Source of the DNA: Brachycybe producta
Taxonomy: Eukaryota; Arthropoda; Diplopoda; Playtdesmida; Andrognathidae
DNA length: 64,000 nt
Reading direction: 5' to 3'
NCBI GenBank assembly: GCA_036925085.1
Contig: JAUPFP010000035.1
Span: 2,297,856 to 2,361,855, forward strand
Shown here: piece by piece, positions 64 to 63,924 of the stretch
Layout of the letters: each line of letters starts with the position of its first letter
Position numbering within the stretch: position 1 is the first letter of the stretch
The notes under the pieces: generated by a model
Databases searched by the model: none
Told to the model about the DNA's origin: nothing
Seen by the model: the letters and a program-made list of their open reading frames with translations, nothing else
Translations under genes and position numbers: made by a program

Positions 64-205
64 TGTAACACCCTGTAAATCGTGATCCCGCCAAAACCAT
101 AGCCTGGGGGGTAAACAACTCTCAACCGTCCCTCCCTCCTCTCTGACTCACCTTTCTGACTCATGCCCAAGTGGCGGATTGATACATAAAGGACCATGGT
201 CACTT

Positions 206-240
206 GGACCTGGTTACACCTCGCAGGTGTACACAGGTCC
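206..240. promoter_or_regulatory. Conserved inverted repeat upstream of LTR TATA box
   Basis: GGACCTG (206-212) pairs with CAGGTCC (234-240) and TACACCT (215-221) with AGGTGTA (225-231), around a CGC loop. The two arms survive in all three LTR copies of the family: here, near 58,588 in the solo LTR, and near 58,130 in the minus-strand LTR. It could be a dimeric protein-binding site or an RNA/DNA hairpin. Confidence 0.7.
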
Positions 241-244
241 AAGG

Positions 245-251
245 TATAAAA
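245..251 (+). promoter_or_regulatory. LTR TATA box
   Basis: TATAAAA in the context GGTATAAAAGGACC, 133 bp upstream of the AATAAA signal, the spacing expected for an LTR promoter. The same box occurs at 9845 in the 3' LTR. Confidence 0.8.
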
Positions 252-751
252 GGACCATGTTCCTCTTTGTTCCTCAGTTCTTTCCTTTGCCTGTTTTTGC
301 GATACATTCCAAATCATGGGCCTGAGGATTTCCAGTTAGTATATTACTATTCACCCTTGTATCTGTACTTCTTACAAGGAATGAATAAAAGTGTTGTAAC
401 AAGAAGTAGCGTTGTCTCTATGTTTATGTAAATAACTTCTCTTCAGAGGCCGGAGGTTTCATAGGGCAGGAGCTATACGATTCTCAGCAGCTACAACATC
501 TTCTCTAGTCGGAATACCGATGGAGAAGATGTATATCAGCATCAACCGGAAGAGAGAGAGATGGCCGCCACTCTCCTGCATTGATTTCACCCCCATGCAG
601 AAGAGTGACTACAATCTATCTCCATCCAGCTCTCTCTACAGCTCGGATCTTCTCTGTGCAGGTGTCATACTGCTCAGAGAGGAAACGAAAAGTAGAAAAT
701 GTCATCTAAAGGTTGGTAATAAAATATTGGTTGATGTCAAAAGCTCACATT

Positions 752-767
752 TGGTGGAGGTGCGGGG
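752..767 (+). promoter_or_regulatory. Primer-binding site, probably tRNA-Ala
   Basis: TGGTGGAGGTGCGGGG begins 2 nt after the 5' LTR. Its complement would end in CACCTCCACCA, which resembles the 3' end of many eukaryotic tRNA-Ala. The match stops after about 16-18 nt. The tRNA identity is inferred from memory of the family, not searched. Confidence 0.65.
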
Positions 768-859
768 TATAGCTCCATCTGCCTTCTCCGACCTGTAAAC
801 AGAAGCCGTCCTTTGTCCTAAGTCTCGTGATTGTGCCTCACGAGGCTTCGTCCGTCCTT

Positions 860-1230
860 TCTATGTTGGAGCCACGTATGGAGACCCTCGATAGCGTCAA
901 AGTCAACCGCGTGGCGCCTGTCTGTAAAACCGCGTATGGAGACCCTCGATCACGTCAAAGTCAACCGCGCGGCGTCCTTTGTGTTGGAACCACGTGTGGA
1001 GACCCTCGATAGCGTCAAAGTCGACCACGTGGCGCCTTTGTAAAACCGCGTATGGAGGCCCTCGATCACGTCAAAGCCAACCGCGCGGCGTCCTTTGTGT
1101 TGGAACCACGTATGGAGGCCCTCGATAGCGTCAAAGCCAACCGCGTGGCGCCTTTTTATGTTGGGATCATGTATGGAGGCCCTCGATCACGTCAAAGCCA
1201 ACCGCATGGTACCGTTTTTGTGGAATCGCG
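860..1230 (+). repeat. Tandem ~58-60-bp minisatellite with two-subunit higher-order structure
   Basis: Six copies with the core GTATGGAGRCCCTCGAT start at 876, 934, 994, 1050, 1110 and 1171. Two subunit types alternate: one continues AGCGTCAAAG and the next CACGTCAAAG, so the true unit is a dimer of about 116-121 bp present three times. Every copy contains CACGTG- or CGCGTGG-like palindromes. It lies in the transcribed leader. Several short overlapping ORFs here are a by-product of the repeat. Confidence 0.85.
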
Positions 1231-3190
1231 AAAGAGACTTGTGGCTACACACACCACGTGTCGACCGCGCGATTCTGTGTCCTGTCCTTAGAGACACGTG
1301 GGAACGAACTTTTGTCTGCTGACCGCTTAGCACTCGGAAAGTGGACAACCGTTTGGACACACGTGTTTCCGTCCGTGTTTTTGTATTTCATGTTTCCATT
1401 ACAATCACCCACTGTCACCTTCACTCTTCTTTAATTTTCAAAGTGAAACCCACACCACGTGGGCAACACTTTAAACAAATTCTTCTTACTCTCCGAGAGG
1501 AGTTTGCAGTCTCATTATGAGATGAGCAAACAAATCTCATCTACTAATCTATTCATCTATTAATAGGCTTTTAAAGGACGTGTGTGTCTTTTAAAATGTC
1601 CTATTATCTTCACTCTTCATCTTTAATTTTCAAGCAAGATTCTCCCTAGCTCTATTTCATTGTTAGGGGGCTTACAAGCTTAAAACACACTTTTTCTAGC
1701 CACGTGGGACTTTCTTGTCCCCCCTTTTCTTTGTTCTTTGTTTTTACACTTGTGTTTCCCTTGGGACCCTCTATGTCCCAAGTCATGTTCTTCAATTTCT
1801 TCATCATCATCACCTCAATGCATCATCACATGAACTTTCTCCATTGGACAGCACTGAAGCCCGGCCGCCATCTTGGATCGACCGGACACTCTTCAAAAAG
1901 CGCCAACGGAGCGGTTTTTCGCTCCATGTGACTCATTGTTGTACCTTCTCTCATCTTTTTGTGTTCTCTTCTCTTCTCTTCCAGAGGGTTGCACTCACGC
2001 GCCCCCTGGCGGAGTTCCTCTTGTTAGAGAAAACTTCTCTTTTTCTTTGAATTTTCTCTCTTTTTGTGTCTTTCTCCTGGCCACCATAAAAACGTGCCCC
2101 GGAGGAACTTTTCAATCATCAATTTTTGGACATTGCAATAAACTGAACCGGAAGTGGCCACCTCAGCGCCACCTACGGACTTCTTCATTCTACTCAACAT
2201 AGTCCCTCACTGGGCACTGACTCTGTCTTTTCATCCAGAGCCATCCAGCAGTGAGGACTCAAAATTTCTCCAGTCTGAACATTTCTTCTGGTTCACCAAG
2301 TATTTATCTTGTTGAACACACTTCAATTTCTACACTGTTTTACTGTTTTAATAAAACTAAATTGAAACTTTTGATGTGCGGGCACCGCACCTAAGTTTTA
2401 AACTTTCAAAGTAAAACAGCTTTCTTTTCTTGCTTCTTTGGAGAGTTCAGCCATCTTGAACTTCTCCTTTGTTTGTGCATTTAAAAAGTTCAGCCATCTT
2501 GAACTTTTTGTTCTTTGTGTGTTCTTCACACACACACTCTTCATTCTTGTTTCTAAGTAAAACTAAAAGTGCGGGCACCGCGCTCTAGCTTTACTCTTCG
2601 TATTGCTTTCCTCTTCTTCAGGCAATTGCAATACACTTTCATTTCTAATTCACTTTCCGCAGTGCAATCTTGATTGGGTGGTGTACCACGCTCGAGGTTG
2701 TATTGTACATCTGCTGTTTCTTTATTGAGGTTTTTGGAATTCTCGTAACCTCCACGTGGTCGCCAAATACCACGTGTCGAGAGAGATCCTTCCAAAATCT
2801 GACGCTCAATAAAGAACTCACGACGCCACACCAGTTGGGAACCAAAACTCATCACACGCCCAACTGAGAACACGATCAACCCGACACAACCATCACCACA
2901 CTAACGGAGTGAACGGCCACTTCGTTATACACGTCACAAGCTTAGGTAATCTATCGTTATTCAGTGTATAAGAGTACGATAGTGTCGGTTGCCGACAAGC
3001 ACTAAATTGCCAACGCGCAGTGACATCACCGACCTACAACTTCACGAACTGAACGAGTCCCATCATACTGGAACCCGAAAGTATAGCTCAGAGTGTACTC
3101 GAGAACCCTCGGAGCTGCACACAACGACTTGGACTTCGCCGGACTCGTTCGTCACCGCACATTCACATTACACAAGCCACTTCATTAATC
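1231..3190 (+). other. Long structured 5' leader of the retroelement
   Basis: About 2 kb between the minisatellite and gag with no credible ORF. Nested inverted repeats are frequent. 1440-1472: AAAGTG/CACTTT enclosing CCCAC/GTGGG. 1520-1542: AGATGAG/CTCATCT. 1561-1606: TAATAG/CTATTA enclosing an 11-bp stem. 2376-2390: GTGCGG/CCGCAC, with a second version near 2556-2597. GTTCAGCCATCTTGAAC is repeated near 2446 and 2490. Such a leader would normally hold packaging and dimerisation signals; that role is inference. Confidence 0.7.
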
Positions 3191-5572
3191 ATGGCTACCT
3201 CACACGACAATACGGGGTCCCTGTCTGATCACCAGGGTTCGCACGAAGATCTGTTGGAAGTACCCGTGACTACTGATGTGACACCACCGCCGCGGCCGAC
3301 TGGGGCCGAGTTTGACCACCTGTCACAACAAGTGGCTGCACTCTCGACTCGTATGTCTCAGTTCATAGACGACCGATTCACACCGAATCGACCGACTACA
3401 CCACGGCGGACAACACGCACACACCGACTTCGCGACGATGACTCGGACGCCTCTTCAGCCCCCTATGTTGGCTACAGAGAGCGTCACGATCGTTACGAAA
3501 GACATTACACACCGCACACACGTCATCTACCGCGTAACCCTGACTGGCAACAACAAGGGCAGTCAGATGATCCGCGTCACAGAGATGAGCGTGCGGAAAT
3601 ACCGATCACGACACGTGCTGATTCTCCTCACTCGCTTGTCCGGGTTGCACGTAGCGGTCGCCGCTCGACACCCCCGGAGCAACAGCCTAGCCAAGGAGCG
3701 ACACAAGGCACTTCAGTTTACGCGCCACGTTTTCCACCGCAAGGGGTAGGTCTGATGCCGGCTGGAATGTCAAACGTCCAGGATGGCATCTATCGACCAA
3801 CCCCCAGAGAACCCTCCGTGGAAGAATTCAATAAGAAATACAGCGGTCGCCACCCAGCCGACTCAATCCAAAAATTCAACGGATTGACAGGTTTCCGTCC
3901 CTTCCTGGAAGAATTCGAGGAAGTAGCACACCTGTACGGTTGGAAAGACCACCACAAGGAGGAATACATCACGGGGTGTTTCACTGGGGCCGCCCGCACG
4001 TGGCTGAGTAAACTGAGGTATGAGCTTCAGGACATTCCTTGGCCAGCACTGAGAGTACAGATGGTAGATACGTTCGGGAAGCCGAACGAACTGGCCATCT
4101 TGGAGAAAAAGTATACAGAGATGCTCCAGAAGGAAGGTGAGAGTACACAAGCTTTCATCTGGGAGTTTATGATACTCGGCGACCGAGTTTATCCGCAACT
4201 TGACGATCAGCTGCGTATAAGCCAGTTGCGCCGCGCTCTACATCCCACCATACAGAACGCCGCGCATCACGCATCTACGACGTCGTTCAAGGACTTCGCA
4301 AACGCCGTCCTCAATATGGAGGTGGTCTTGCTGTCCTTGGATAAATGGCCGACGGAACCGAAACCCGCAGCTGATTCACAGTCGGGTAAAGGAGCATCGA
4401 AGACCGACCAGGAGCCGGCGGCAGCCGCCAGCCCTAAAGACAAAACACACCGGTCTAGGCATGATAAAAAGCCTAGTCAGACTGCTGCCACCAATTCAAA
4501 CCGACACTCTGCAGCGGACACCCAACCAGAGACCACTCGCACGTTCGACAAGAGTAAGTCGACGTGTTATAATTGTGGCAAATTGGGGCATTTCGTCCGT
4601 GAGTGTCGGCAACCAAAGAAGAAGGTTGCAATCAAGCAGTTTGGAGAGCCGGTTACCGACTATGACATCAAAGGAGAGGTGCCTGAGACGGATATCATCA
4701 CCGAAGACGGCGTTGAGTTTGCTCTAATAAGAGTGGCGGGACAAATCCGCCGGATTCCTCTTCCAGCAGCAGACTCAGCCGCCGGAGCGCCTACTCCTGA
4801 TAAACCCGACAACGACAGTTCTGACGACTCTGAGGATATACCAGTCAAGGTGCTCGACCGGGCTCCTGCACATAAATGGACCCCGGACGATCTAATCGTT
4901 TGGCAGGACACGCTCGACGTCCTTAAACAATCCGTCAAGGAGATTGGGTGCCGTGAAAATAAAACAATAGCCATCATGGCTCCCGGAACCCAATCGCCGA
5001 CGAAGGGCCACTCCTGCTGCCGAAGACTAATGACAACGGTGTATGAGCAGCTGGTAAGCAGCTGTTCACCTCAAGAAGTCGGAGACTATGATGCCAGCGA
5101 CAAGAACCCGCGCATCGCCGTCACGATCAACGGAAAGAGTATACGGATGCTCGCGGACACCGGAGCTACGGGCAGCGTTATCACCATTGAACTCGCGCAG
5201 GAACACAAGTTCGAAATCGAGCCTGTGTTAATCCCACCCAACATTCAGGGTGTGGGAGGCCAAAGGATCACCGTGGTGGGGCGACTCGCCGCGACGGTCC
5301 AGCTGGGCCCCCACGCTGTGCGAGGGCACTTACTAGTGATTACCGGCCGGCACGAAGCCATCTTAGGCCGAGATCTAGGCCGGGCTCTGCACTTAGCTGT
5401 GTCCATGACAACAAACAAAGTATACGTGGAGGACGACCTCTTCGAATCCACACTCCGACAAAAATGCATCGAAGCACACATCGGATGGGCTCTGGGAGAA
5501 ACTTCCGTAGAGGCCCCTGGCAAATCTGCCAGCACCTCTAAGGAAAACCTCGAAACTCCACCCCGTAAGTGA
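3191..5572 (+). CDS. gag: Gag-protease polyprotein of LTR retrotransposon (793 aa)
   Basis: Structural polyprotein that would form the cytoplasmic virus-like particle, with a fused aspartic protease. The N-terminus is a polar, low-complexity region; residues about 225-360 match the Ty3/gypsy-type Gag capsid domain (FNGLTGFRPFLEEF, then TWLSKL). A CCHC zinc knuckle, CYNCGKLGHFVREC, is at residues 459-472 (CX2CX4HX4C). Towards the C-terminus a retropepsin is visible: catalytic DTGA with D at residue 656, and ILGRD about 75 residues later. The ORF then stops; nothing resembling RT follows in any frame. The start at 3191 has a good Kozak context (A at -3, G at +4). The last codons, CGT AAG TGA, include a strong splice-donor-like GTAAGT (5565-5570). 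No frameshift or internal stop is seen, so the gene looks functional. Confidence 0.92.
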   Translation: MATSHDNTGSLSDHQGSHEDLLEVPVTTDVTPPPRPTGAEFDHLSQQVAALSTRMSQFIDDRFTPNRPTTPRRTTRTHRLRDDDSDASSAPYVGYRERHDRYERHYTPHTRHLPRNPDWQQQGQSDDPRHRDERAEIPITTRADSPHSLVRVARSGRRSTPPEQQPSQGATQGTSVYAPRFPPQGVGLMPAGMSNVQDGIYRPTPREPSVEEFNKKYSGRHPADSIQKFNGLTGFRPFLEEFEEVAHLYGWKDHHKEEYITGCFTGAARTWLSKLRYELQDIPWPALRVQMVDTFGKPNELAILEKKYTEMLQKEGESTQAFIWEFMILGDRVYPQLDDQLRISQLRRALHPTIQNAAHHASTTSFKDFANAVLNMEVVLLSLDKWPTEPKPAADSQSGKGASKTDQEPAAAASPKDKTHRSRHDKKPSQTAATNSNRHSAADTQPETTRTFDKSKSTCYNCGKLGHFVRECRQPKKKVAIKQFGEPVTDYDIKGEVPETDIITEDGVEFALIRVAGQIRRIPLPAADSAAGAPTPDKPDNDSSDDSEDIPVKVLDRAPAHKWTPDDLIVWQDTLDVLKQSVKEIGCRENKTIAIMAPGTQSPTKGHSCCRRLMTTVYEQLVSSCSPQEVGDYDASDKNPRIAVTINGKSIRMLADTGATGSVITIELAQEHKFEIEPVLIPPNIQGVGGQRITVVGRLAATVQLGPHAVRGHLLVITGRHEAILGRDLGRALHLAVSMTTNKVYVEDDLFESTLRQKCIEAHIGWALGETSVEAPGKSASTSKENLETPPRK
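5565..5570 (+). promoter_or_regulatory. Candidate splice donor overlapping the gag-pro stop codon
   Basis: CCCC|GTAAGT, with TGA beginning at 5570. Consensus-quality donor at the very end of the ORF. Candidate partners are an acceptor inside or before ORF2, or CTTTTTAG ending at 9438. Use in vivo is inference. Confidence 0.4.
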
Positions 5573-7082
5573 CGACGAAAGCAACGGCCACCCACGCTGT
5601 CAAGAAACCAAACGCGACGAAAATAAAACAATAATTCACCAGTGTTTATTTCATGACTATGGAAATAAACACCAGCAACCATCAAATATCAACAATAGAA
5701 GAGCGGGAGGAATTTGAGAATTGTTGTGTTGAAAAACAACTGAGGACAGTTGTCAAGAGGTGGGGGAGGGGATAAAAGGAACCCCCCAACGAATAAACAA
5801 CCCCACAGCATCAACAACCCCTCTAAACACTCTCAAATAACTCCCAAAACTCTACAAAATTCATACAACTTTAATTTTCGAAACACTTTTAAACTTTTCA
5901 AAATGGCCGCCAATATTTACATATTGGCAACCATTTCAAACATGCAATAAACTACACCGGAACCACGTGGCCTTCACACACAACTGTCAACCACGTGGTA
6001 CACCTGGGAAAAACGCCGAAGGCTAGTCAAGGACGTTCAGAAGAAAAATCAAGAGCCATAAAAGGGTCAGCAAAAGGAAAAACACCGTGCTCCCCTTTAT
6101 TATGGACGGACGTCATTGACCATGCTGTTGACAGTAGAGGGATAGAAAACTTCAAAGAGACAATTGCTCTGGGGGCCAGACCAATGCACTGGGACTTCAA
6201 AGAAAAAAAAACAAACAACAAAAACTGCTGGCCATAAACAAATAAAAAAAAAAAAAAGAAGAAAATCAGTTTTGAAGATTTTGTGAGAGCGGACACCTTC
6301 AATTAAAAAATAAAATTGAAGAACCTGTCACCCTCTCAATTAAGATCGAATTGTGGGACACCAACTCCTGTCCCACTCCCCCCTAAAAATAATAACAAAC
6401 AGCAAGGTACATTAGTAACCTTGCTGACCTATTCTTTCCAAAAAAAAAGGCATTAAGGAAAAGAAGGGGAGAAAGTTAATGGGCAACTTCACACCTCGGT
6501 GTGAAATAAAATAACGGCCCTTCTCCCTCGAGATTCCTTAGTCCTTTTGTTTATCTAAAAATAATAAACAGGACCGACTCTGATAAGAATTAGATCAACA
6601 CCTCTCACATCTAATGTCGGTGGGACAACCCCCACCCCCAATAAATAAAGTCGTGAAGAAACCAATTAGAGTAAGGTGTCTTATTCTAAAAGGGGCCGGC
6701 CCTTCTAACTTTTAAAATTAAATAAGAAAAGTGACCAAACTTGGTCAATTACCACTTGATTTGCTCTCTTCAAAGAAGCACTCGTTTTATTCATCCTGTC
6801 ATCTCAATTATATTCACCTTCGATTCTTCAAATCTTCAAGTCCTTTTTGTGCCAAGTTCCAAACTCTAATTTCGGACTTCATCAGTTTTTGTTATTAATC
6901 AAAAGCTTGAGTGCCACCTTCAAGCCTTTGAACTCACGTGCAGTGCATCAGGCCTTCAGAACTCTTTGGACCTCTTGAAATAATAACAGAGTGATCGGGG
7001 ACCGATTTCTGTTATTATTTGGAAGTAACCACCAGCAACGGGACTTTTGAAAAAGTAAGAACTTTTAAACTCTTAAGAAAAT
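5573..7082 (+). ncRNA. Stem-loop-packed spacer between gag-pro and ORF2
   Basis: No credible ORF. Consecutive inverted repeats occupy much of the region: 5642-5672 (11-bp stem GTGTTTATTTC), 5737-5752 (CAACTG/CAGTTG), 5901-5936 (AAATGG and GCCAATAT stems), 6285-6337 (GAGAG, GACA and CTTCAATT, three nested stems), 6353-6376 (GTGGGACA), 6400-6426 (CAGCAAGGT), 6454-6540 (TAAGGAA, GGGAGAA, TTCACACC nested), 6541-6574 (GTCC and TGTTTAT), 6573-6621 (ACCGAC and ATTAGAT), 6666-6689 (10-bp, one G.U), 6693-6702 (GGGCCGGCCC), 6732-6747 (TGACCAA) and 6978-7020 (13-bp stem plus ATCGG/CCGAT). Arms within one hairpin have matched interruptions, as in folded RNA. Candidate roles are translation of ORF2, packaging or export. 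Confidence 0.65.
5769..5780 (+). promoter_or_regulatory. TATA-like element between the two ORFs
   Basis: GGGATAAAAGGAACC resembles the LTR promoter core GGTATAAAAGGACC. It could drive an internal transcript carrying ORF2. Weak evidence, based on sequence similarity only. Confidence 0.3.
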
Positions 7083-9260
7083 ATGCCAGGTAGAGGCTCA
7101 TGGAGAGGAGGCAGAATGATGTCTGCCTCTTCTAGTGAAGATGAGACGGAGAGTGGAACGGCGGGGACCGCTGAACCCCTCTCTCAATCTACCTGCCAGC
7201 TACAAAGGGCGGGCGCCGCCAGTGCGCCAGTAACAAGAAGAGAGTCGCCAAACATAATAGATAGGCGCCGCACCTCCTCCGAACCGGAGAATTTTCACCG
7301 GCGTGGGGAGAAGCGCCTAAAAGCAAGCTTCAAGCGACCTGCCAATGTCGGGCGCGAAGGGAAGCCTGCTGCTCCAAGCAGCATCGTCCCCTTCGACGTC
7401 ACGACATCAAAACACTACTGGGAGGAGCGGGAAGACCGCGTCGATATTAATACAATGGCATGGGGGGTTAACCAGGCGTTCCGCGATAGCATCGCGCCTG
7501 GTCAACCCATTCCGGGTGGAGCTGAAGCAAGAGGGAAGCGTGGGGGAGGTGGATCTGTGCCCTCCCCCCTCGAAGACCTCCACTTGGAGATGCAGAGGGA
7601 GGCTGCCCTTCGCCAGGCAGCCAGAGATAAAAAGGAAGGGGAGGACAATCTGGCGTACCTCCGTGCGGTTTGCGCCCGCCTTGTCGAGCTGGGCTTACCG
7701 TGTACGGCGCAACTCCCGAAGGAGGAGCTCCTGCAAATCGAGGCCCGACTCCAAGAAGCCGCCCAAGTTACGTCATCGGCCACGTCATCACCTCCATCCT
7801 CAAACTCGCCAGCAACCCTGACAACTGGCCTCTCCACATCTCCTTCTCCACCCATAACGCCACCAGAGCCTTTCCAACACTGCTCACTGGTGCCGTCAAT
7901 CACTCCGCCGCCTCCTCCTCATACACCATTATCGTCACCACCAACCTCCCGATGTGCCACGCCTCCACGCAGCGAGGCCGCCACACCAACTCCGACTCCA
8001 AAGCTACCTTCCATAGTGGTGGTTCCCCAACCTGTTCGTGTTCAGGTTCCCACTGGGGCTCGCCCCAAGGAGCCTCAACAGTCCTACAGGGGCCACCACT
8101 CTTCTCGAGACTCTCTTCAACGGCCACAACCACGTCGCTCTTCGCCACGTGGTTCCCATCTTTCGCCCCGACGCCGACCCGACGGAAGAAGTCAGCAGGA
8201 ACAACGTGGTTCCTCTGGACGCGGCCCTCCGCCGCGTAATAACTTCGACCCAAGGGTCAGGCAAGACCTACAGGATCACCGAGTCCAACTGGACCGCGAC
8301 CATCGCTATGAAACTCGGGGCCCTCCTACTTGGGTCCCGCGTCGCTCTCCTCCTCCGCCACCTCCGGGCCGCCCTTCTGGACAACCTACGCCTACACCTT
8401 TGATGCCGCCACCTTCCGCAGAGCGTGCCGCGTTCTTGAAAAAACAGAAGGCCATCACAAACCTTCTGCAAGACGTCATGCGACAGGGAGGTGACCCCAT
8501 GGAAGCACTGGGCCGTGCACCAGGAAGTGCCAAGCCACTGGAGGCGCTGAGCAGGAAGTCGGCATCGAAGCGACTACGTCAGCGGGCCCGCGATATGGCC
8601 CGGTCCGCCTTGCGCCATGCCAGGCCTATCACGGGCGCATCAGTTTCTTTGGAACCTGCGGCTCCAACACCAGCCCGACCAGCCGCACCGCCCACTGTAC
8701 CCCATGCCGGGGCTACTCTGGGGCGGTTACCGCTGGATCATCCGTTCCGTGCAGCCACCTCCGGCGAGAGGTTGCTCAACAATCGGTGGGTCACTTGGCA
8801 GCGCGAAGTGCGCTCTGCCAACACCCTTTACATAGGACACTTCTCTTTGGAGGAAGGGTTTCCCCGTCTGGACCTCCCTCCCCGGGAGCGATATGTCGTG
8901 GGACTCTCCCGCCTAACAAGTGTCCTCATCACCATCGTCTTCCCAAGAAGACGGATTGTTGAAACCACCAGTTTCGCCGGAGATGCCATCGATGAAGCCA
9001 CGGAAGCCCTTTTGGGAGCTTTCGTCAACTCCGTCTTTAGACTGCCAGCTGGACAGACGTTCCGTACCAGCCGTCACTACATTCCGGAACCGGATCCTCG
9101 TTACCGAATCGCCGTCTTATGGGACGCCGCTTGGGCTACCTTGTACAACAAGCGGTCCTCCCGCAAGATTATCGGGGACCGGGACATCTTCAATATCTTC
9201 CACCGGGATCTACCTGACGACCAGGGGCAATGGCTGTCTGCCGCATCCAGCTACCGATGA
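7083..9260 (+). CDS. Unrecognised retroelement ORF2 protein (725 aa)
   Basis: An intact ORF filling the position where pol would be expected, but with none of its motifs (no YXDD, no HHCC zinc finger, no DD35E pattern). Residues 1-100 are acidic/serine-rich then basic. A short helical, charged stretch follows (about residues 155-235). The middle, roughly 235-480, is a proline/serine/arginine-rich low-complexity region with polyproline runs. Residues about 460-540 are basic and helical (SKRLRQRARDMARSALRHAR), compatible with nucleic-acid binding. The last ~175 residues (about 550-725) look globular, with NNRWVTWQREV and a hydrophobic strand SVLITIVFPRRR. No signal peptide or membrane span is seen, so an Env-like role is unlikely. 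The ATG has A at -3. A segment of the minus-strand element at 49.5-50.0 kb may be related. Function unknown. Confidence 0.8.
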   Translation: MPGRGSWRGGRMMSASSSEDETESGTAGTAEPLSQSTCQLQRAGAASAPVTRRESPNIIDRRRTSSEPENFHRRGEKRLKASFKRPANVGREGKPAAPSSIVPFDVTTSKHYWEEREDRVDINTMAWGVNQAFRDSIAPGQPIPGGAEARGKRGGGGSVPSPLEDLHLEMQREAALRQAARDKKEGEDNLAYLRAVCARLVELGLPCTAQLPKEELLQIEARLQEAAQVTSSATSSPPSSNSPATLTTGLSTSPSPPITPPEPFQHCSLVPSITPPPPPHTPLSSPPTSRCATPPRSEAATPTPTPKLPSIVVVPQPVRVQVPTGARPKEPQQSYRGHHSSRDSLQRPQPRRSSPRGSHLSPRRRPDGRSQQEQRGSSGRGPPPRNNFDPRVRQDLQDHRVQLDRDHRYETRGPPTWVPRRSPPPPPPGRPSGQPTPTPLMPPPSAERAAFLKKQKAITNLLQDVMRQGGDPMEALGRAPGSAKPLEALSRKSASKRLRQRARDMARSALRHARPITGASVSLEPAAPTPARPAAPPTVPHAGATLGRLPLDHPFRAATSGERLLNNRWVTWQREVRSANTLYIGHFSLEEGFPRLDLPPRERYVVGLSRLTSVLITIVFPRRRIVETTSFAGDAIDEATEALLGAFVNSVFRLPAGQTFRTSRHYIPEPDPRYRIAVLWDAAWATLYNKRSSRKIIGDRDIFNIFHRDLPDDQGQWLSAASSYR

Positions 9261-9663
9261 GGCCAGGTCCGGCGGGATTACCCCCCCGTACGGTTCATGG
9301 ACCCAGGATCCTCCCCACCCTCCGCAGCAGGGATAGCTGCGCGCCACATGTACTCATGTGGTTGCCACCCATCCGGGTGGCCTTATCGAAAAATTTATAA
9401 AAAAATAAAATACGTTGCAACTGTTCTTTTCTTTTTAGATTTCAATAGCGGCTCGCCACTCAGCGAGCATTAATTATCTTTGTTTTATGTTTTCAGCCTT
9501 TTCCAATTTTTAAGGGCGCTGACACTTCGGTGCCAGTGCCTTTCCATAACCACCTCTGTACACGGTAAGTCCTCAGCCACCCATGTCTCCCCGCTGCGTA
9601 ACTTGAAAACCTTCCACCCTTGGCTGGAGTACGAGGACGTACTCCAAGCAAAGTTGGAGGGTA
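9261..9663 (+). other. 3' non-coding region with hairpins, splice-like sites and polypurine tract
   Basis: Three perfect short hairpins: CCACATG/CATGTGG (9344-9361), GCCACCC/GGGTGGC (9364-9381) and GCTCGC/GCGAGC (9451-9468). A pyrimidine tract ending in TTTTTAG (to 9438) and a GTAAGT donor (9565-9570) would bound a 126-nt exon. The purine-rich AAGTTGGAGGGTA (9651-9663) abuts the 3' LTR and is the likely plus-strand primer. Confidence 0.7.
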
Positions 9664-10349
9664 TGTAACACCCTGTAAATCGTGATCCCGCCAAAACCAT
9701 AGCCTGGGGGGTAAACAACTCTCAACCGTCCCTCCCTCCTCTCTGACTCACCTTTCTGACTCATGCCCAAGTGGCGGATTGATACATAAAGGACCATGGT
9801 CACTTGGACCTGGTTACACCTCGCAGGTGTACACAGGTCCAAGGTATAAAAGGACCATGTTCCTCTTTGTTCCTCAGTTCTTTCCTTTGCCTGTTTTTGC
9901 GATACATTCCAAATCATGGGCCTGAGGATTTCCAGTTAGTATATTACTATTCACCCTTGTATCTGTACTTCTTACAAGGAATGAATAAAAGTGTTGTAAC
10001 AAGAAGTAGCGTTGTCTCTATGTTTATGTAAATAACTTCTCTTCAGAGGCCGGAGGTTTCATAGGGCAGGAGCTATACGATTCTCAGCAGCTACAACATC
10101 TTCTCTAGTCGGAATACCGATGGAGAAGATGTATATCAGCATCAACCGGAAGAGAGAGAGATGGCCGCCACTCTCCTGCATTGATTTCACCCCCATGCAG
10201 AAGAGTGACTACAATCTATCTCCATCCAGCTCTCTCTACAGCTCGGATCTTCTCTGTGCAGGTGTCATACTGCTCAGAGAGGAAACGAAAAGTAGAAAAT
10301 GTCATCTAAAGGTTGGTAATAAAATATTGGTTGATGTCAAAAGCTCACA
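9664..10349 (+). repeat. 3' LTR (686 bp), identical to the 5' LTR
   Basis: Offset exactly 9600 bp from the 5' LTR with no difference found over the whole length. Identity implies very recent insertion or gene conversion. AATAAA at 9984-9989 is the expected transcript end signal. Confidence 0.95.
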
Positions 10350-10985
<636 letters not shown>

Positions 10986-35677: not shown

Positions 35678-37716
35678 CTAGTCACTATCAATAATATGGC
35701 AATCATTGTCAGATGTAACCTCACGATAAATTATTGTATCATCTGCAAATAGCCGGCAATTGCTGCTAACTTGACTGCTGAGGTCATTGATATATAAAAG
35801 AAACAGAAGCGGACCCAACACACTACCCTGAGGAACCCCTGATGTAACCCCTATCCAGTCAGATTCAGACCCACCTGCAACAACCCTTTGTTTCCTGTCA
35901 CTCAAAAAAGGAATGCACCCATTTATACACCTGTTCACCCAATCCATACCCACTAATTTTTTTCATTAGTTTTGAGTGAGAAACTGTGTCAAATGCCTTG
36001 CAGAGATCAAGAAAAACCAAATCTATCTGACTGCCTTTGTCTAAAATTTTCTGAAGGTCATCAACTAAAAGAATAAGCTGGGTTTCACATGAACGCCCCC
36101 TAAGAAACCCATGCTGGTTATCACACAAAAGATTGTTTTCCATAAGAAAATTCATTGAGAAGGAATATATAATATGTTCAAGGACCTTGCAAACTATCGA
36201 GGTTAAAGACACGGGTCTGTAATTAGTTACCTGAGACTTGTCTCCTGATTTAAAAATTGGACTAACATTAGCTAATTTCCACATATCTGGTACAATACCT
36301 ACATCTAAACTCTGTTGAAAAATTAACTGAAGGTATGGACCCAACTCTTGTGCAAGATTTTTTAAAATGATAGCATACATCCCATCTGGACCACAGGTTT
36401 ATTTGAGTCTAATTTTAGAAGTTGCTTGACTATCCCATCTGCAGTTATTACAATTTGATCCATACAAAGAGATGTTGAAGGAAAATCCTCATGTGGTATG
36501 CCATCATCAATTGTGAAGACCTTCTTGTATTGTTCATTTAATAAGGTAGCTTTCCCTACTGCATCTGAAACAAGCTTCCCATTTATGTCAACCAGAGAAG
36601 GAATAGATTCTCTACTTTGCCTAGAGTTCTTGATGTAACGCCAAAATAGTTTTGGGTCCGTTTTTAACCATTCTCCAAGCGTTTCTGTTTTAAAAATATC
36701 GTGAGCTAACAAGATTTCCCGTTTCGCTGCTGTGCGTGCAATACGGAATTCATTTGAATTCACTAATTTTGGGTGATTTCTAGCCCTATTCCTCCATAAG
36801 CGTTGCTTACGAAGAGCCCTTTTAACTTTGCTAGTGTACCATACTGGTGTGGCACAGTCTCTAACTACCTTGGTTGGAATAAAGGAGGAAGACCCACTTA
36901 AAATTAAACTATGAAATCGTGACCAATTCAAATTCACATTTTGAGGATGAAAACATTCTTTAAATTTATGAAAATTATCTATCAAATGTGACTTAAAACC
37001 ATCCCAATTACATTTGTTAAAAAGAACACTACTCTTTTAACCTCAGAAATTTTTTCCACACATGCATTAACATCACATAAGACAATCTGATGATCACTAA
37101 TTCCCCCTGATACCCTAACATTGGATAATAACTCTGGACTATTAGTCAGTACTACATCAAGAATTTTGTCATTTCTGGTTGGTTTAGTTACAACCTGTTC
37201 CATAGAATAAGTATTCATACTATCTAAAAATGAAACTGCTAATGGCTTGTCACTGCCACTGATCACCGTATGCATTTCCCAGTTGATGTTTGGAAAATTT
37301 ACATCACCTCCTAAAATAATCATTGGGCTATGGTATTTACGATGAAGAGTGTCCAAAGAAGTTCTTACACTAGTTACATCTGCTATGGAGGATCCCGGTG
37401 GCCGATAGAAAGAATATAAAAACACCTTTTTACCATTCTTTAGCCTTAAACTACAACATACTATTTCATAGTCTGTTTCAAAACTTGTTTCCCTGCAACT
37501 ATGAAATATTTGTGAAATAGCTATGAAAACCCCACCTCCAGAACGACCAACCCTGTCTCTACGGTACACTGTGAAACCATCTGGAAATATTTCCCCATTA
37601 TTAACAGTATCATCAAGCCATGACTCTGTACCAAGAATTATATTGCAACCAGTCTCCTCAACTGCCGCAATGAACTCAGGAACTTTGTTTCGTAGACTCC
37701 TACAGTTAACCACCAT
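35678..37716 (-). pseudogene. Jockey/CR1-type LINE: endonuclease and partial reverse transcriptase, frameshifted
   Basis: One LINE ORF split over four overlapping frames by about three frameshifts. First comes an AP-like endonuclease (37,716 to about 36,990; ILGTESWL, GGGVFIAI, ILGGDVNFPNINW, SDHQIVL). Then a linker with HNH-free basic sequence (to about 36,370). Then reverse transcriptase: NYRPVSLTSIVCKVLE, FLDLCKAFDTVSH, SGVPQGSVLGPLLFLLYIND and active-site FADD. Coding sequence stops about 18 residues after FADD at 35,679, so RT thumb, C-terminus and 3' UTR are missing. Loss of the 3' end is not what target-primed 5' truncation produces, so a later deletion or rearrangement is likely. Clade assignment (Jockey/CR1) is from the domain order and motif style. 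Confidence 0.88.
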
Positions 37717-37967
37717 AACCTTTACATGTGAAGGTATAGCTGAAGTGGGTTTTCCTAAATGATTTCCTTCCTGGACAGTGTTTGAAGAAATAATACCTCA
37801 AACAAAGGAACTATTGCTCCCAGCAACAAGCTGTGGAGCATTCATATTAGTATCAACCCCCTAAAGCATTTGCACCTAAACCCCAAAACCTTACCCTAAA
37901 AAATGCTTAACAAAATCACCTATCTTTTTACCCACAATCGATTAAAAATATACATATAAAAATATTA
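37717..37967. other. 5' flank of the LINE
   Basis: Possible 5' UTR of the LINE; no defined end or target duplication identified. Confidence 0.4.
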
Positions 37968-45391: not shown

Positions 45392-46027
45392 TATATAGGA
45401 TCATGCAAGAAAAGGGGAAAAAAAGGATGTCTGTGTGTGTGTATGTATGTGTGTGTGTGTGTGTGTCCGGAACCCGATTTAGTTCCTCGAACAACTCAAG
45501 AAGGATGGAATGAGATAAAGACATGCAGTATTTTTTATTTGATTCCGTGGGTCAATATGAAGCTCCTGAAAAAAAATTAGAAAATTTTACCCAGGGGTTA
45601 TTTTTTTATGATTTTTTTAGAAACAAATTTTGAGTTTTTGGTCATAATTTTTAGTGGGTCGAACAACTCGAAAACGGGGCCACCTACAATAAAATGTCAT
45701 CAGACTTAAAATGATGTAAACATTCTGACGATGAAACTGGAAAAAATTGGAATTTTAGAGCGATTCGATATATAAAATTTCGATTTTTTAAAAACGTAAT
45801 TTTTTTTTCAAAAAATCGAGATTCTTCCTCTTTCCAGTTGTAGCATTCGAAAGGGGGGACTTTTCTATTATTTAGGAGGGGTGTTCCTTTTTATGTTCTG
45901 TTATTATTTTTGTATATTAGAATACATGTGACGTATTTTCATTTTAAACCCATATTATTACAAATGAATGACGCATGTGCATCATATGTAACTATGTCAT
46001 GTACATGAGTACATACATGTGTGATTA

Positions 46028-46656
46028 TCTATATACATATGCGCACACGTGTGTACATGTGCGTACACATGCGCACACGTGTGTACATGTGCGTACACAT
46101 GCGCACACGTGTGTACATGTGCGTACACACATGCGCACACGTGTGTACATGTGCGTACACATGAGCACACGTGTGTACATGTGCGTACACATGAGCACAC
46201 GTGTGTGTACATGTGCGTACACATGCGCACAAGTGTGTACATGTGCGTAGACATGCGCACAAGTGTATACATGTGCGTACACATGCGCACACGTGTGTAC
46301 ATGTGCATACACACATGCGCACACGTGTGTACATGTGCGTACACACATGTGCACACGTGTGTACATGTGCGTACACATGAGCACATGTGTGTACATGTGC
46401 GTACACATGCGCACAAGTGTGTACATGTGCGTAGACATGCGCACAAGTGTGTACATGTGCGTACACATGCGCACACGTGTGTACATGTGCATACACATGC
46501 GCACACGTGTGTACATGTGCGTACACATGCGCACACGTGTGTACATGTGCATACACATGCGCACACGTGTGTACATGTGCGTACACATGCGCACACGTGT
46601 GTACATGTGCATACACATGCGCACAAGTGTGTACATGTGCATACACATGCGCACAA
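46028..46656. repeat. 30-bp alternating purine-pyrimidine tandem array
   Basis: About 20 copies of a 30-bp unit built from GCGCACACGTGTGTACATGT and GCGTACACAT. The unit is almost strictly alternating purine-pyrimidine and self-complementary in parts, so it should favour Z-DNA or cruciforms. All six frames stay open because 30 is divisible by 3; none is a gene. Confidence 0.95.
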
Positions 46657-47192
46657 TGAAAAAAAGTTGGTTATTTGATATATGAAAGCATATATTAAAG
46701 CAATGGAGGTCTATAGGGTTCCTTGAATCCCTTGTTTAACTTTAGTCTTTGAAAAAACTCTTGGTTTCTACGCATATGTGAAATTTTAATTTTAAACTCA
46801 GTGGTTTTTAAATATTGGTCAATTCTTTTATCCAAATTAATATAAAACTTTGTTTTACCGAAAAACCGAAACGTCAATTTACCATTAATACTGATATAAC
46901 AAAAGACTGGTAATACCGGTTTACTGGTAATGATAAAGCCGGTAATGGAAACCCTATAATACACAAACACACAACATACGAAAATACACACATTCAAATC
47001 CCAGGGGAATGTTAAGTTTAAATTCTCTTTAAGGCAATCATATTTTTAAGAGAGAAAAAAACGAAAGGTCTAGTTTAATTCCACATTGTGGATTTAATGT
47101 AGCATAACAATATGCTTCAAATTTGTTTCAGAAAAAAAATGTGGTGAAGGAAACTTGCACCTTCACAGAAATAGAACTGTGCGTGTGAACAC

Positions 47193-63204: not shown

Positions 63205-63924
63205 CTAATTTTTAGCATGATTTTTCGAGAGAGAGTTGTTTGAACAGTCCAGAAACTTTTGCCTATGGTCAGACACGACTTGCAGCAGGAACTGCAACTG
63301 CTCCTCCCCTTTCGTTAACTTTTTGTTAAAATCGTGGATGAGTGCCACACCACGCTCAGCCCTGTCATTAACAACAGCCAGCTCTCTGAGAATAGCCACA
63401 GATGCCTTGTATGACTCATCATCTTCCCACTGAGAAGGATCCTTTGATAGGAATGCATTATGCAATCCCAATTGTTGGAACAGTCTCTTAGAGTTGGTCG
63501 TGCAGAACTGTTCCAAACCTCTGCTTCCGAAAAACGCATCTGGTTCCACTCTAGGGCGCTTCGGTGGAATGTCCGGAGCTTCAATGTCCATGGCTGCAAG
63601 CATAAGTTTCTTACACTCTGGAGAAACTCTAGAATCAAATAGATCCAATCCAACCAGTTCCTCAGACAGATACCATAGGTGGAGTCCGAGTTTTTTGCAC
63701 GTCTTTTTGGAAACATCTGTTTGAGGGTACCTGATAAGTTGTCCCATCAGGTTGAAGTCATTCAAAGGCACCTCCACAGCTAGTGGCGCGGCCATCCATA
63801 CCTTGAGATAAACCAAGACAGAGAAGACAGCTAGGTCATGGATTCCTCTTTGTTCCGAAGCAGTCACGTATTGTAAACGAAACTCGAATAACCAACGGGT
63901 CAAGAACAGTGTGCTGCTGCAATT
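63205..63924 (-). CDS. 3'-terminal exon of an uncharacterised invertebrate protein
   Basis: About 239 open codons on the minus strand ending at TAA near 63,205. No in-frame ATG starts it; CCCCTAG at 63,930-63,925 can serve as acceptor, after which AATTGCAGC is in frame, so an upstream exon is expected beyond. The sequence is even in composition with no low complexity: FRLQYVTASEQRGIHDLAVF, LWYLSEELVGLDLFDSRVS, then ELAVVNDRAERGVALIHDF and GEEQLQFLLQVVSDHRQKF. I recall similar ERG-ALI / EEQ-FLLQVV sequences as uncharacterised multi-copy proteins of invertebrates, possibly mobile-element associated; this is memory, not a search. No domain assigned. Confidence 0.65.
   Translation of the reverse strand, partial: NCSSTLFLTRWLFEFRLQYVTASEQRGIHDLAVFSVLVYLKVWMAAPLAVEVPLNDFNLMGQLIRYPQTDVSKKTCKKLGLHLWYLSEELVGLDLFDSRVSPECKKLMLAAMDIEAPDIPPKRPRVEPDAFFGSRGLEQFCTTNSKRLFQQLGLHNAFLSKDPSQWEDDESYKASVAILRELAVVNDRAERGVALIHDFNKKLTKGEEQLQFLLQVVSDHRQKFLDCSNNSLSKNHAKN

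What the first reader, a model, noticed from the sequence alone, without database searches (positions are those of the whole stretch)
64..10349. Young LTR retroelement with Gag-PR and an unknown second protein in place of pol
Both ORFs are intact and the LTRs are identical, so this is not decay of an autonomous element: pol appears to have been replaced. Known non-autonomous LTR elements keep no ORFs (TRIM, LARD) or only Gag (TR-GAG); a second large intact protein of unknown fold is not something I can match to a described class.
Basis: partly seen in the sequence, partly recalled or inferred. Interest (0 to 1): 0.88.

Follow-up and report, generated by a model that had tools for sequence, protein, structure and literature searches.

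The report
Two-part retrotransposon, Gag half
This jumping gene makes the particle shell but not the copying enzymes, and a second element with the same ends makes the enzymes but not the shell, so the two look like complementary halves of one system, although a complete relative in the same genome may also help them.

Summary
Window 64-10349 is a young LTR element with identical 686-bp LTRs, Gag-protease, a second intact ORF and no reverse transcriptase or integrase. The reading that ORF2 replaced pol is not right. The same genome holds a partner family, B, with the same LTRs, primer site, leader and 3' end. B encodes protease-RT-RNaseH-integrase but no capsid or zinc knuckle, plus a short ORF2 homologue. 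Of 25 typed elements carrying these LTRs, 20 are window-type (A), 5 are B and none was seen to be complete. One B copy has exactly the leader of the window and three other A copies over 1 kb, but differs from a second B copy at 43 sites, so A and B exchange sequence. Gag, Pol and the ORF2 C-terminal domain show purifying selection in older copies. A keeps a scar of the pol tail. Most likely A supplies Gag and B supplies Pol. Pol-less Gag-plus-extra-ORF elements are known in plants (Athila, RLG_Quinta); a capsid-less pol partner with over 100 copies is the new part. A third family, C (10 frames of 2287 codons holding Gag and RT), could be a helper; its LTRs could not be read. ORF2 is an orphan protein.

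The parts
64..749 (+). 5' LTR, 686 bp, TG...CA
   Evidence: identical to 9664-10349; 41 near-full-length matches in the genome, capped list
752..767 (+). primer binding site TGGTGGAGGTGCGGGG, two bases after the LTR
   Evidence: read; same in the partner B copy
750..3190 (+). 2.4-kb leader shared with partner B (100% identical over 750-1749 to the B copy at C22, falling to 62% beside the coding region)
864..1214 (+). six tandem copies of a 56-61 nt unit in the shared leader; candidate packaging or dimerisation region (inferred only; folds no better than shuffles)
3191..5572 (+). ORF1: Gag (capsid, zinc knuckle) and protease, 793 codons
   Evidence: Pfam; dN/dS 0.02-0.16 against four of five copies, 0.62 in the fifth with 3 changes
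3968..4243 (+). Retrotrans_gag (capsid) domain
   Evidence: a 136-aa piece over it is identical in 150 of 150 scored copies, capped list
4562..4612 (+). CCHC zinc knuckle
5117..5374 (+). aspartic protease domain (DTG); region deleted in L042 and probably in copies with 629-codon frames
5733..5772 (+). scar of the 3' tail of a pol gene
   Evidence: aligns to the end of the partner's pol; score 51, best of 1000 shuffles 36
7083..9260 (+). ORF2, 725 codons, basic, proline-rich, no known family
8718..9257 (+). ORF2 C-terminal domain (residues 546-725), shared with partner B
   Evidence: alignments; dN/dS 0.06 in two comparisons
9428..9663 (+). 3' segment shared with partner B, ending in the purine-rich stretch before the 3' LTR (candidate polypurine tract, by eye)
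9664..10349 (+). 3' LTR

Best explanation
The window element (A) is the Gag-supplying half of a complementary pair of Ty3/gypsy-type LTR retrotransposons. A makes capsid, nucleocapsid and protease plus ORF2. Partner B makes protease, reverse transcriptase, RNase H and integrase plus a short ORF2. Both carry the same LTR, primer site and leader, so both RNAs should be packed into particles built from A's Gag, copied by B's polymerase and inserted by B's integrase at the shared LTR ends. Shown: the gene contents, the shared termini, exchange of leader sequence between A and B, selection on the proteins in older copies, and the pol-tail scar. Inferred: co-expression, packing into the same particles, use of A's Gag by B, and how a Pol with no Gag part enters the particle. 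My estimates: A uses B-type Pol 0.85; B uses A's Gag 0.65. ORF2 most likely acts in the particle or RNA stage shared by both elements, not as an envelope; this is the weakest part.
For: Same LTRs, opposite gene content: 20 A, 5 B and no complete element among 25 typed (how far pol was excluded in each A is told in the full report). The 5 B copies align unbroken across the capsid-knuckle place, and in 6 more B copies the leader end runs straight up to the pol start. Linkage: 0 of 150 capsid hits lie within 6 kb of any of 108 B RT hits; 30 of 30 scored B pol hits have the B ORF2 downstream. Leader 750-1749: B(C22) has 0 differences from the window and from A copies L039, L041, L044, but 43 mismatches from B(C2). 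Selection: B pol dN/dS 0.18-0.22 (P<=3e-7 or lower); Gag 0.02-0.16 in 3 older copies (P<=1.3e-7); ORF2 C-domain 0.06 (P=0.0015) in L040 and L042.
Against: A complete family C exists: 10 copies with Retrotrans_gag and RT in one 2287-codon frame, RT 87% identical to B. If C shares the LTR and leader, it could mobilise A and B without A's Gag. None of the 41 LTR hits and none of the 134 B-ORF2 matches lies within 12 kb of a C copy, but both lists were capped and C could not be read. A and B are only 48% identical over the protease region, so A's Gag and B's Pol come from lineages that parted long ago. Leader exchange could also come from gene conversion in DNA. B(C2) is far from all A copies over 750-1749 (43-47 mismatches), so exchange is shown for one B copy. 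No expression or particle data. The two comparisons with fewest changes (L041, L044) show no constraint on ORF2; L040 and L042 give the same C-domain counts and may share their changes.
Confidence: 0.68

Rival explanations
1. A complete element (family C, or another Gag-Pol family of this genome) is the true helper. A and B are separate hitch-hikers that lost pol and gag respectively and do not need each other.
For: 10 C frames of equal length with capsid and RT; B's RT is 87% identical to C's. Known plant systems have a complete partner (PMC11302176, PMC9744471, PMC2410132, passages seen).
Against: No complete element among 25 typed with these LTRs; no LTR hit near any C copy (capped lists). 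Gag of A is under strong purifying selection in older copies, so it is used. A and B swap leaders.
Confidence: 0.25
2. One reading: pol was replaced by ORF2, which carries a new function in place of pol.
For: ORF2 is intact, constrained in its C-terminal domain and without known relatives.
Against: A homologue of ORF2 coexists with a full pol in B; pol-tail scar in A.
Confidence: 0.02
3. The ORFs are intact only because the copies are young; they do nothing.
For: LTR pairs of the three copies compared are identical; many near-identical copies; youngest ORF2 comparisons show no constraint.
Against: dN/dS far below 1 in the older comparisons; A and B ORF2 keep 37% identity and intact frames although long diverged.
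Confidence: 0.05

Closest known systems
Athila families II and IIIa of Arabidopsis (PMC2410132: abstract and passages seen)
   Same: LTR + Gag + third ORF, pol absent; pol-less copies with ORFs under purifying selection; recombination with pol-bearing relatives
   Different: The paper says all pol-bearing Athilas also have gag; here the pol partner with the same LTR carries no capsid. Third ORF called Env there; here no hydrophobic segment and no known family.
RLG_Quinta / RLG_Cereba of wheat (PMC11302176: abstract and passages seen)
   Same: Gag plus a domain of unknown function, no RT/INT; partner shares LTR motifs, PBS and PPT
   Different: Cereba is complete; B is capsid-less. In the passages seen Quinta has one ORF and no protease.
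RLG_Sabrina_SA / RLG_WHAM with RLG_Wilma of wheat (PMC9744471: passages seen)
   Same: Gag-protease element called semi-autonomous, thought to be mobilised in trans
   Different: Wilma is complete and shares only a few motifs; here LTR and leader are almost identical.
BARE-2 of barley (one passage of PMC9744471; Tanskanen 2007 seen only in a reference list)
   Same: Pol kept, Gag lost, like B
   Different: BARE-2's gag is said to be disrupted and BARE-1 presumably supplies Gag; in B the whole capsid-knuckle block is gone.
Extra ORF3s of bdelloid rotifer LTR elements (PMC5408684: abstract seen)
   Same: non-envelope third ORFs in LTR elements
   Different: those types have known domains (GDSL esterase, DEDDy exonuclease) beside gag and pol

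Membership tests
Ty3/gypsy-type LTR retrotransposon | TG...CA LTRs, short target-site duplication, PBS after the 5' LTR | tested here: met
   (4 bp in one A copy, two B copies and one solo LTR; 5 bp in a second solo LTR; 3 of 4 bases in the A copy at C9; uninformative in the window)
Ty3/gypsy-type LTR retrotransposon | Gag with Retrotrans_gag and CCHC, retroviral-type protease | tested here: met
   for A; protease only in B
Ty3/gypsy-type LTR retrotransposon | PR-RT-RNaseH-IN in that order | tested here: not met
   absent in A; present in partner B, so A is filed as a derivative by its Gag-PR, shared termini and pol scar, not as a full member
   A has protease and a 725-codon ORF2
Semi-autonomous Gag(-Pro) element (Sabrina_SA, Quinta, Athila II kind) | intact Gag, no RT/INT, termini shared with a pol-bearing element | tested here: met
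Semi-autonomous Gag(-Pro) element (Sabrina_SA, Quinta, Athila II kind) | a complete autonomous partner with the same termini | tested here: inconclusive
   none seen among 25 typed elements; family C looks complete but its termini were not readable
Retrovirus-like element with envelope | third ORF with signal peptide or transmembrane segment | tested here: not met
   highest 19-residue hydropathy 1.3 in ORF2-A and 1.2 in ORF2-B; no signal-peptide predictor was run

The most novel reading that the evidence does not exclude
A and B are an obligate two-segment (bipartite) retrotransposon: neither is complete, both RNAs are packed by A's Gag through a shared leader, Pol enters particles without any Gag fusion, and the Gag:Pol ratio is set by two separate transcripts instead of by translational recoding. 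The ORF2 domain carried by both is a system-specific part, for example for bringing Pol or the partner RNA into the particle. Family C would then be a related but separate complete lineage.
Probability: 0.33. Interest if true: 0.85.

Novelty: new variant of a known kind. Interest (0 to 1): 0.64.

Why it matters
Multipartite genomes are well known in viruses (recalled), but the three retrotransposon partnerships that I looked at in print (Athila, Cereba/Quinta, Wilma/Sabrina/WHAM) have a complete member. Here two high-copy families with nearly identical ends hold complementary gene sets under selection and exchange sequence. That makes it testable whether a retroelement can live as a divided genome, how Pol gets into particles without a Gag part, and whether cooperation between elements can be stable. 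It also gives a concrete protein domain (ORF2) with no relative found in the libraries searched.

Tried and rejected
Known family for ORF2: none in Pfam, PHROGs, PDB sequences or the 5.8-billion-protein set (9, 69; only about 8000 best candidates scored each time). Weak Pfam SIMPL (best E 0.76, 3 of 5 members) and phrog_17237 (best E 0.11, 2 of 5 members) are treated as chance. AlphaFold2 on one sequence (residues 518-725) gave pLDDT 38.7; no fold search was made on it.

Leader repeats as a structured RNA: energy no better than shuffles, z 0.12.

Identical Gag proteins as proof of selection: rejected. The 30 loci cut were picked by top protein score (one of them, L033, is the window copy); their 0-16 DNA differences are all synonymous by that choice. 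Ratios were taken from copies chosen by LTR instead. Of those 5 A copies, Gag is open and full length in 3 (L044 has one stop, L042 lost the protease region); ORF2 is open in 5 of 5.

A 1916-codon Gag frame at C17:3148028 looked like a complete element; the two pieces fetched there read N, so the frame cannot be interpreted and was dropped. The long frames at C11:3206483 (5498) and C47:354999 (2113) were not followed.

Gag N-terminus vs B Pol N-terminus: weak, 6 of 500 shuffles score as high; not used as proof of how B arose.

It showed that the 86.5% bin is a divergent patch of the B copy at C2, which is far from A copies too; the wording on exchange was mended for that.
Full report
1. The observation. 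The element at 64-10349 is real and the coordinates are right. The LTRs are identical (686 of 686), the primer site is at 752-767, ORF1 is Gag-protease (Retrotrans_gag 1.5e-7, CCHC 5.5e-7, protease 8.5e-13), and ORF2 has no family at E<=1. No frame of RT or integrase size is left between the LTRs; the next longest is 202 codons. Stop-free runs of this length do not arise by chance: maximum 272 in 300 shuffles against 839 observed.

2. Copies in the genome. LTR search: 42 rows, 41 near full length and 1 a 55-bp fragment. Gag: 57 of 57 scored copies full length without stop. ORF2: 62 of 62. A 136-aa capsid piece: 150 of 150 scored copies identical, so A-type Gag has at least 150 loci. All these lists hold only the best-scoring candidates, so they are lower bounds on copy number and over-represent intact copies. 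Two Gag frames recur: 839 codons (84 of 150) and 629 codons (40 of 150). For the plus-strand copies that I tabulated with a paired ORF2 hit, the 629 class has capsid-to-ORF2 distances of 2513-2535 (n=8) against 3025-3275 (n=21) for the 839 class, so about 670 nt are missing. In the one such deletion read (L042; its own frame is 666 codons) this is the protease region; for the 629 class that is inferred from spacing.

3. The partner. Six LTR-bracketed stretches from the LTR list were read, chosen without regard to coding sequence. Five are A-type: Gag full length and open in 3 of 5, ORF2 open in 5 of 5. The sixth (C22, L043) has the same LTRs and leader but a 1562-codon ORF with protease, RT, RNase H, integrase zinc domain and integrase core, no Retrotrans_gag at E<=1 and no CCHC. 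Downstream is a 416-codon frame, of which 294 codons (no start codon fixed) were taken as the homologue of the end of ORF2 (37% over 221 residues). Over residues 535-779 of Gag-PR, A and B are 48% identical.

4. Typing the LTR carriers. The 41 near-full-length LTR rows resolve into 20 A elements, 5 B elements (C22, C2:1764650, C109, C1:15563667, C19:304431), 2 solo LTRs (C51, C25) and 1 unresolved LTR (C19:305198). None was seen to be complete. How well pol is excluded differs among the 20 A: 6 were read through or nearly so (the window, C28, C9:1425170, C6, C20, C1:15384443); 6 have LTR pairs 10.2-10.3 kb from end to end, leaving no room for pol (C9:1379273, C5:336207, C75, C39, C18, C11); 4 are fixed by Gag-to-LTR or Gag-to-ORF2 spacing (C5:5612758, C3:7100123, C17, C32:828110); and 4 were typed by one piece only (C59, C4, C3:5160606, C32:1422028). 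In the 5 B elements sequence runs unbroken across the place where the capsid would be: L043 and L060 long stretches, L073, L074 and L077 over 801 bases each. In 6 further B copies, out of 30 pol hits, the leader end lies directly upstream of pol.

5. Copy number and linkage. B pol: 30 of 30 scored copies full length, 29 without stop. B ORF2: 134 matches, of which the 100 best were carried into the linkage count. B RT piece: 108 hits that I took as at least 96% identical. Of 57 Gag hits, 26 have one of the 62 listed A-ORF2 hits 2-6 kb downstream, and none has one of the 30 B pol or 100 B ORF2 hits nearby. Of 30 B pol hits, 30 have a B ORF2 downstream and none a listed Gag or A ORF2 nearby. With the longer lists, 0 of 150 capsid hits lie within 6 kb of any of 108 B RT hits; 2 pairs lie about 13 kb apart, further than one element spans.

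6. Exchange between A and B. Along the leader, A(window) and B(C22) are 100% identical over 750-1749, at least 99.2% to 2499, then 94%, 78% and 62% towards the coding region. Over 750-1749, B(C22) has 0 mismatches and 0 gaps against the window and A copies L039, L041 and L044, while A copies L040 and L042 differ from it by 4 and 10 mismatches. B(C2) differs from B(C22) by 43 mismatches and is as far from every A copy (43-47). So the C22 copy carries an A-type leader; what the C2 leader is, I do not know. In the LTR, a variant at window position 582 is shared by A copies at C18 and C9, the solo LTR at C51 and B(C2), against the window and C28. Template switching between RNAs in one particle is the usual source of such patches (established knowledge of retroelement replication); gene conversion at the DNA level is not excluded.

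7. Selection. Counted by Nei-Gojobori against the window copy: Gag dN/dS 0.02 (L039), 0.14 (L040), 0.16 (L041), 0.16 (L042), 0.62 (L044, 3 changes); ORF2 0.40, 0.30, 1.42, 0.32 and undefined (L044: 0 synonymous, 5 replacement). ORF2 C-domain: 0.14, 0.06, 0.00, 0.06, undefined; N-terminal 545 residues: 0.84, 0.42, undefined, 0.45, undefined. Where at least 15 changes were seen, neutrality is rejected for Gag (P 6e-9, 3e-9, 1e-7 for L039, L040, L042) and for ORF2 in L040 and L042 (P 5e-4, 6e-4), borderline in L039 (0.05). B pol C22 vs C2, C1, C109: 0.18, 0.22, 0.21 (P 7e-14, 3e-7, 2e-7). Copies share history (L040 and L042 give the same C-domain counts), so the comparisons are not independent. 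Of the 4 B pol genes read, 3 are open over the whole length (C109 with gaps that keep the frame) and C2 has one stop.

8. Origin. A keeps 40 bp aligned to the 3' end of B's pol between Gag-PR and ORF2 (score 51, best of 1000 shuffles 36); the core motif is present in 5 of 5 other A copies read. So A is most likely a deletion derivative, and ORF2 was already the third ORF. B's N-terminus only weakly recalls Gag's (6 of 500 shuffles as good).

9. The complication: family C. An RT-piece search gave, after the B copies, 10 hits at 87% identity with open frames of 2287 codons. A Retrotrans_gag search found a capsid in the same 10 frames, each exactly 2169 nt upstream of the RT. C is therefore a Gag-Pol family that looks complete. 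None of 134 B-ORF2 matches and none of 41 LTR hits lies within 12 kb of a C copy, which hints that C lacks this ORF2 and these LTRs, but both lists are capped. C's sequence could not be fetched. This is the main reason for not claiming an obligate pair. Twelve further rows with frames of 2052-2097 codons and a capsid match exist and were not followed.

10. ORF2. Basic (pI 10.7), 12.7% proline, no hydrophobic segment above 1.3 on the 19-residue scale. Its last 180 residues are the part shared with B; the 545 before them have no counterpart found in B. No relative in any library searched. It is thus not an envelope by this test; any role in bringing Pol or RNA into particles is a guess. A Pol made without a Gag part is known for foamy viruses (recalled, not looked up), so entry of B's Pol into particles is not without precedent.

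11. Comparison and novelty. Pol-less elements with intact Gag and a further ORF or domain, thought to be mobilised in trans, are described in plants (PMC2410132, PMC11302176, PMC9744471; passages seen). In these three systems the pol-bearing partner has Gag; BARE-2 (one passage) has pol with a disrupted gag. I found no description of a capsid-less pol family paired with a pol-less Gag family through the same LTR in the ten full-text searches made (the one in 119 was on HeT-A and TART), which cover only the open library and of which I saw listings. I therefore call it a new variant of a known kind.

Noticed in passing
1-63 and 10350-10882: The element sits inside a long AT-rich microsatellite array (TA with spaced C), so its own insertion site duplication cannot be told.
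   Followed up: partly
35898-37797 (minus strand): Frames that read like the endonuclease and reverse transcriptase of a non-LTR (LINE) element, broken into three frames; judged by eye only.
   Followed up: no
45997-46735: A short GT/AC-rich repeat that is open in four listed frames; low complexity, not a gene.
   Followed up: no
63205-63924 (minus strand): An open frame of 239 codons near the window end, possibly an exon or transposon gene; not identified.
   Followed up: no
L043 9134-9552: The B copy at C22 has about 420 extra bases between its 5' LTR and the primer site, with the last 55 bases of the LTR repeated after them.
   Followed up: partly
G000 (40 of 150 capsid hits): A recurring 629-codon Gag frame with about 670 nt missing before ORF2: probably a protease-less subfamily of A that has also spread and must get protease in trans.
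   Followed up: partly
9490-9570: The 3' segment shared by A and B holds splice-like signals (TTTTCAG and GGTAAGT), present in both; unexplained.
   Followed up: no
G000: Twelve further rows with open frames of 2052-2097 codons and about the same capsid score as family C; their RT was not looked at.
   Followed up: no
G000:C19:304431 and 305198: Two LTRs in opposite orientation 82 bases apart beside a B element; one is unresolved.
   Followed up: partly
L060, about 2450-2700 (B copy at C2): A divergent patch in the leader, 86.5% identical both to the window (bin 1250-1499) and to the B copy at C22.
   Followed up: no
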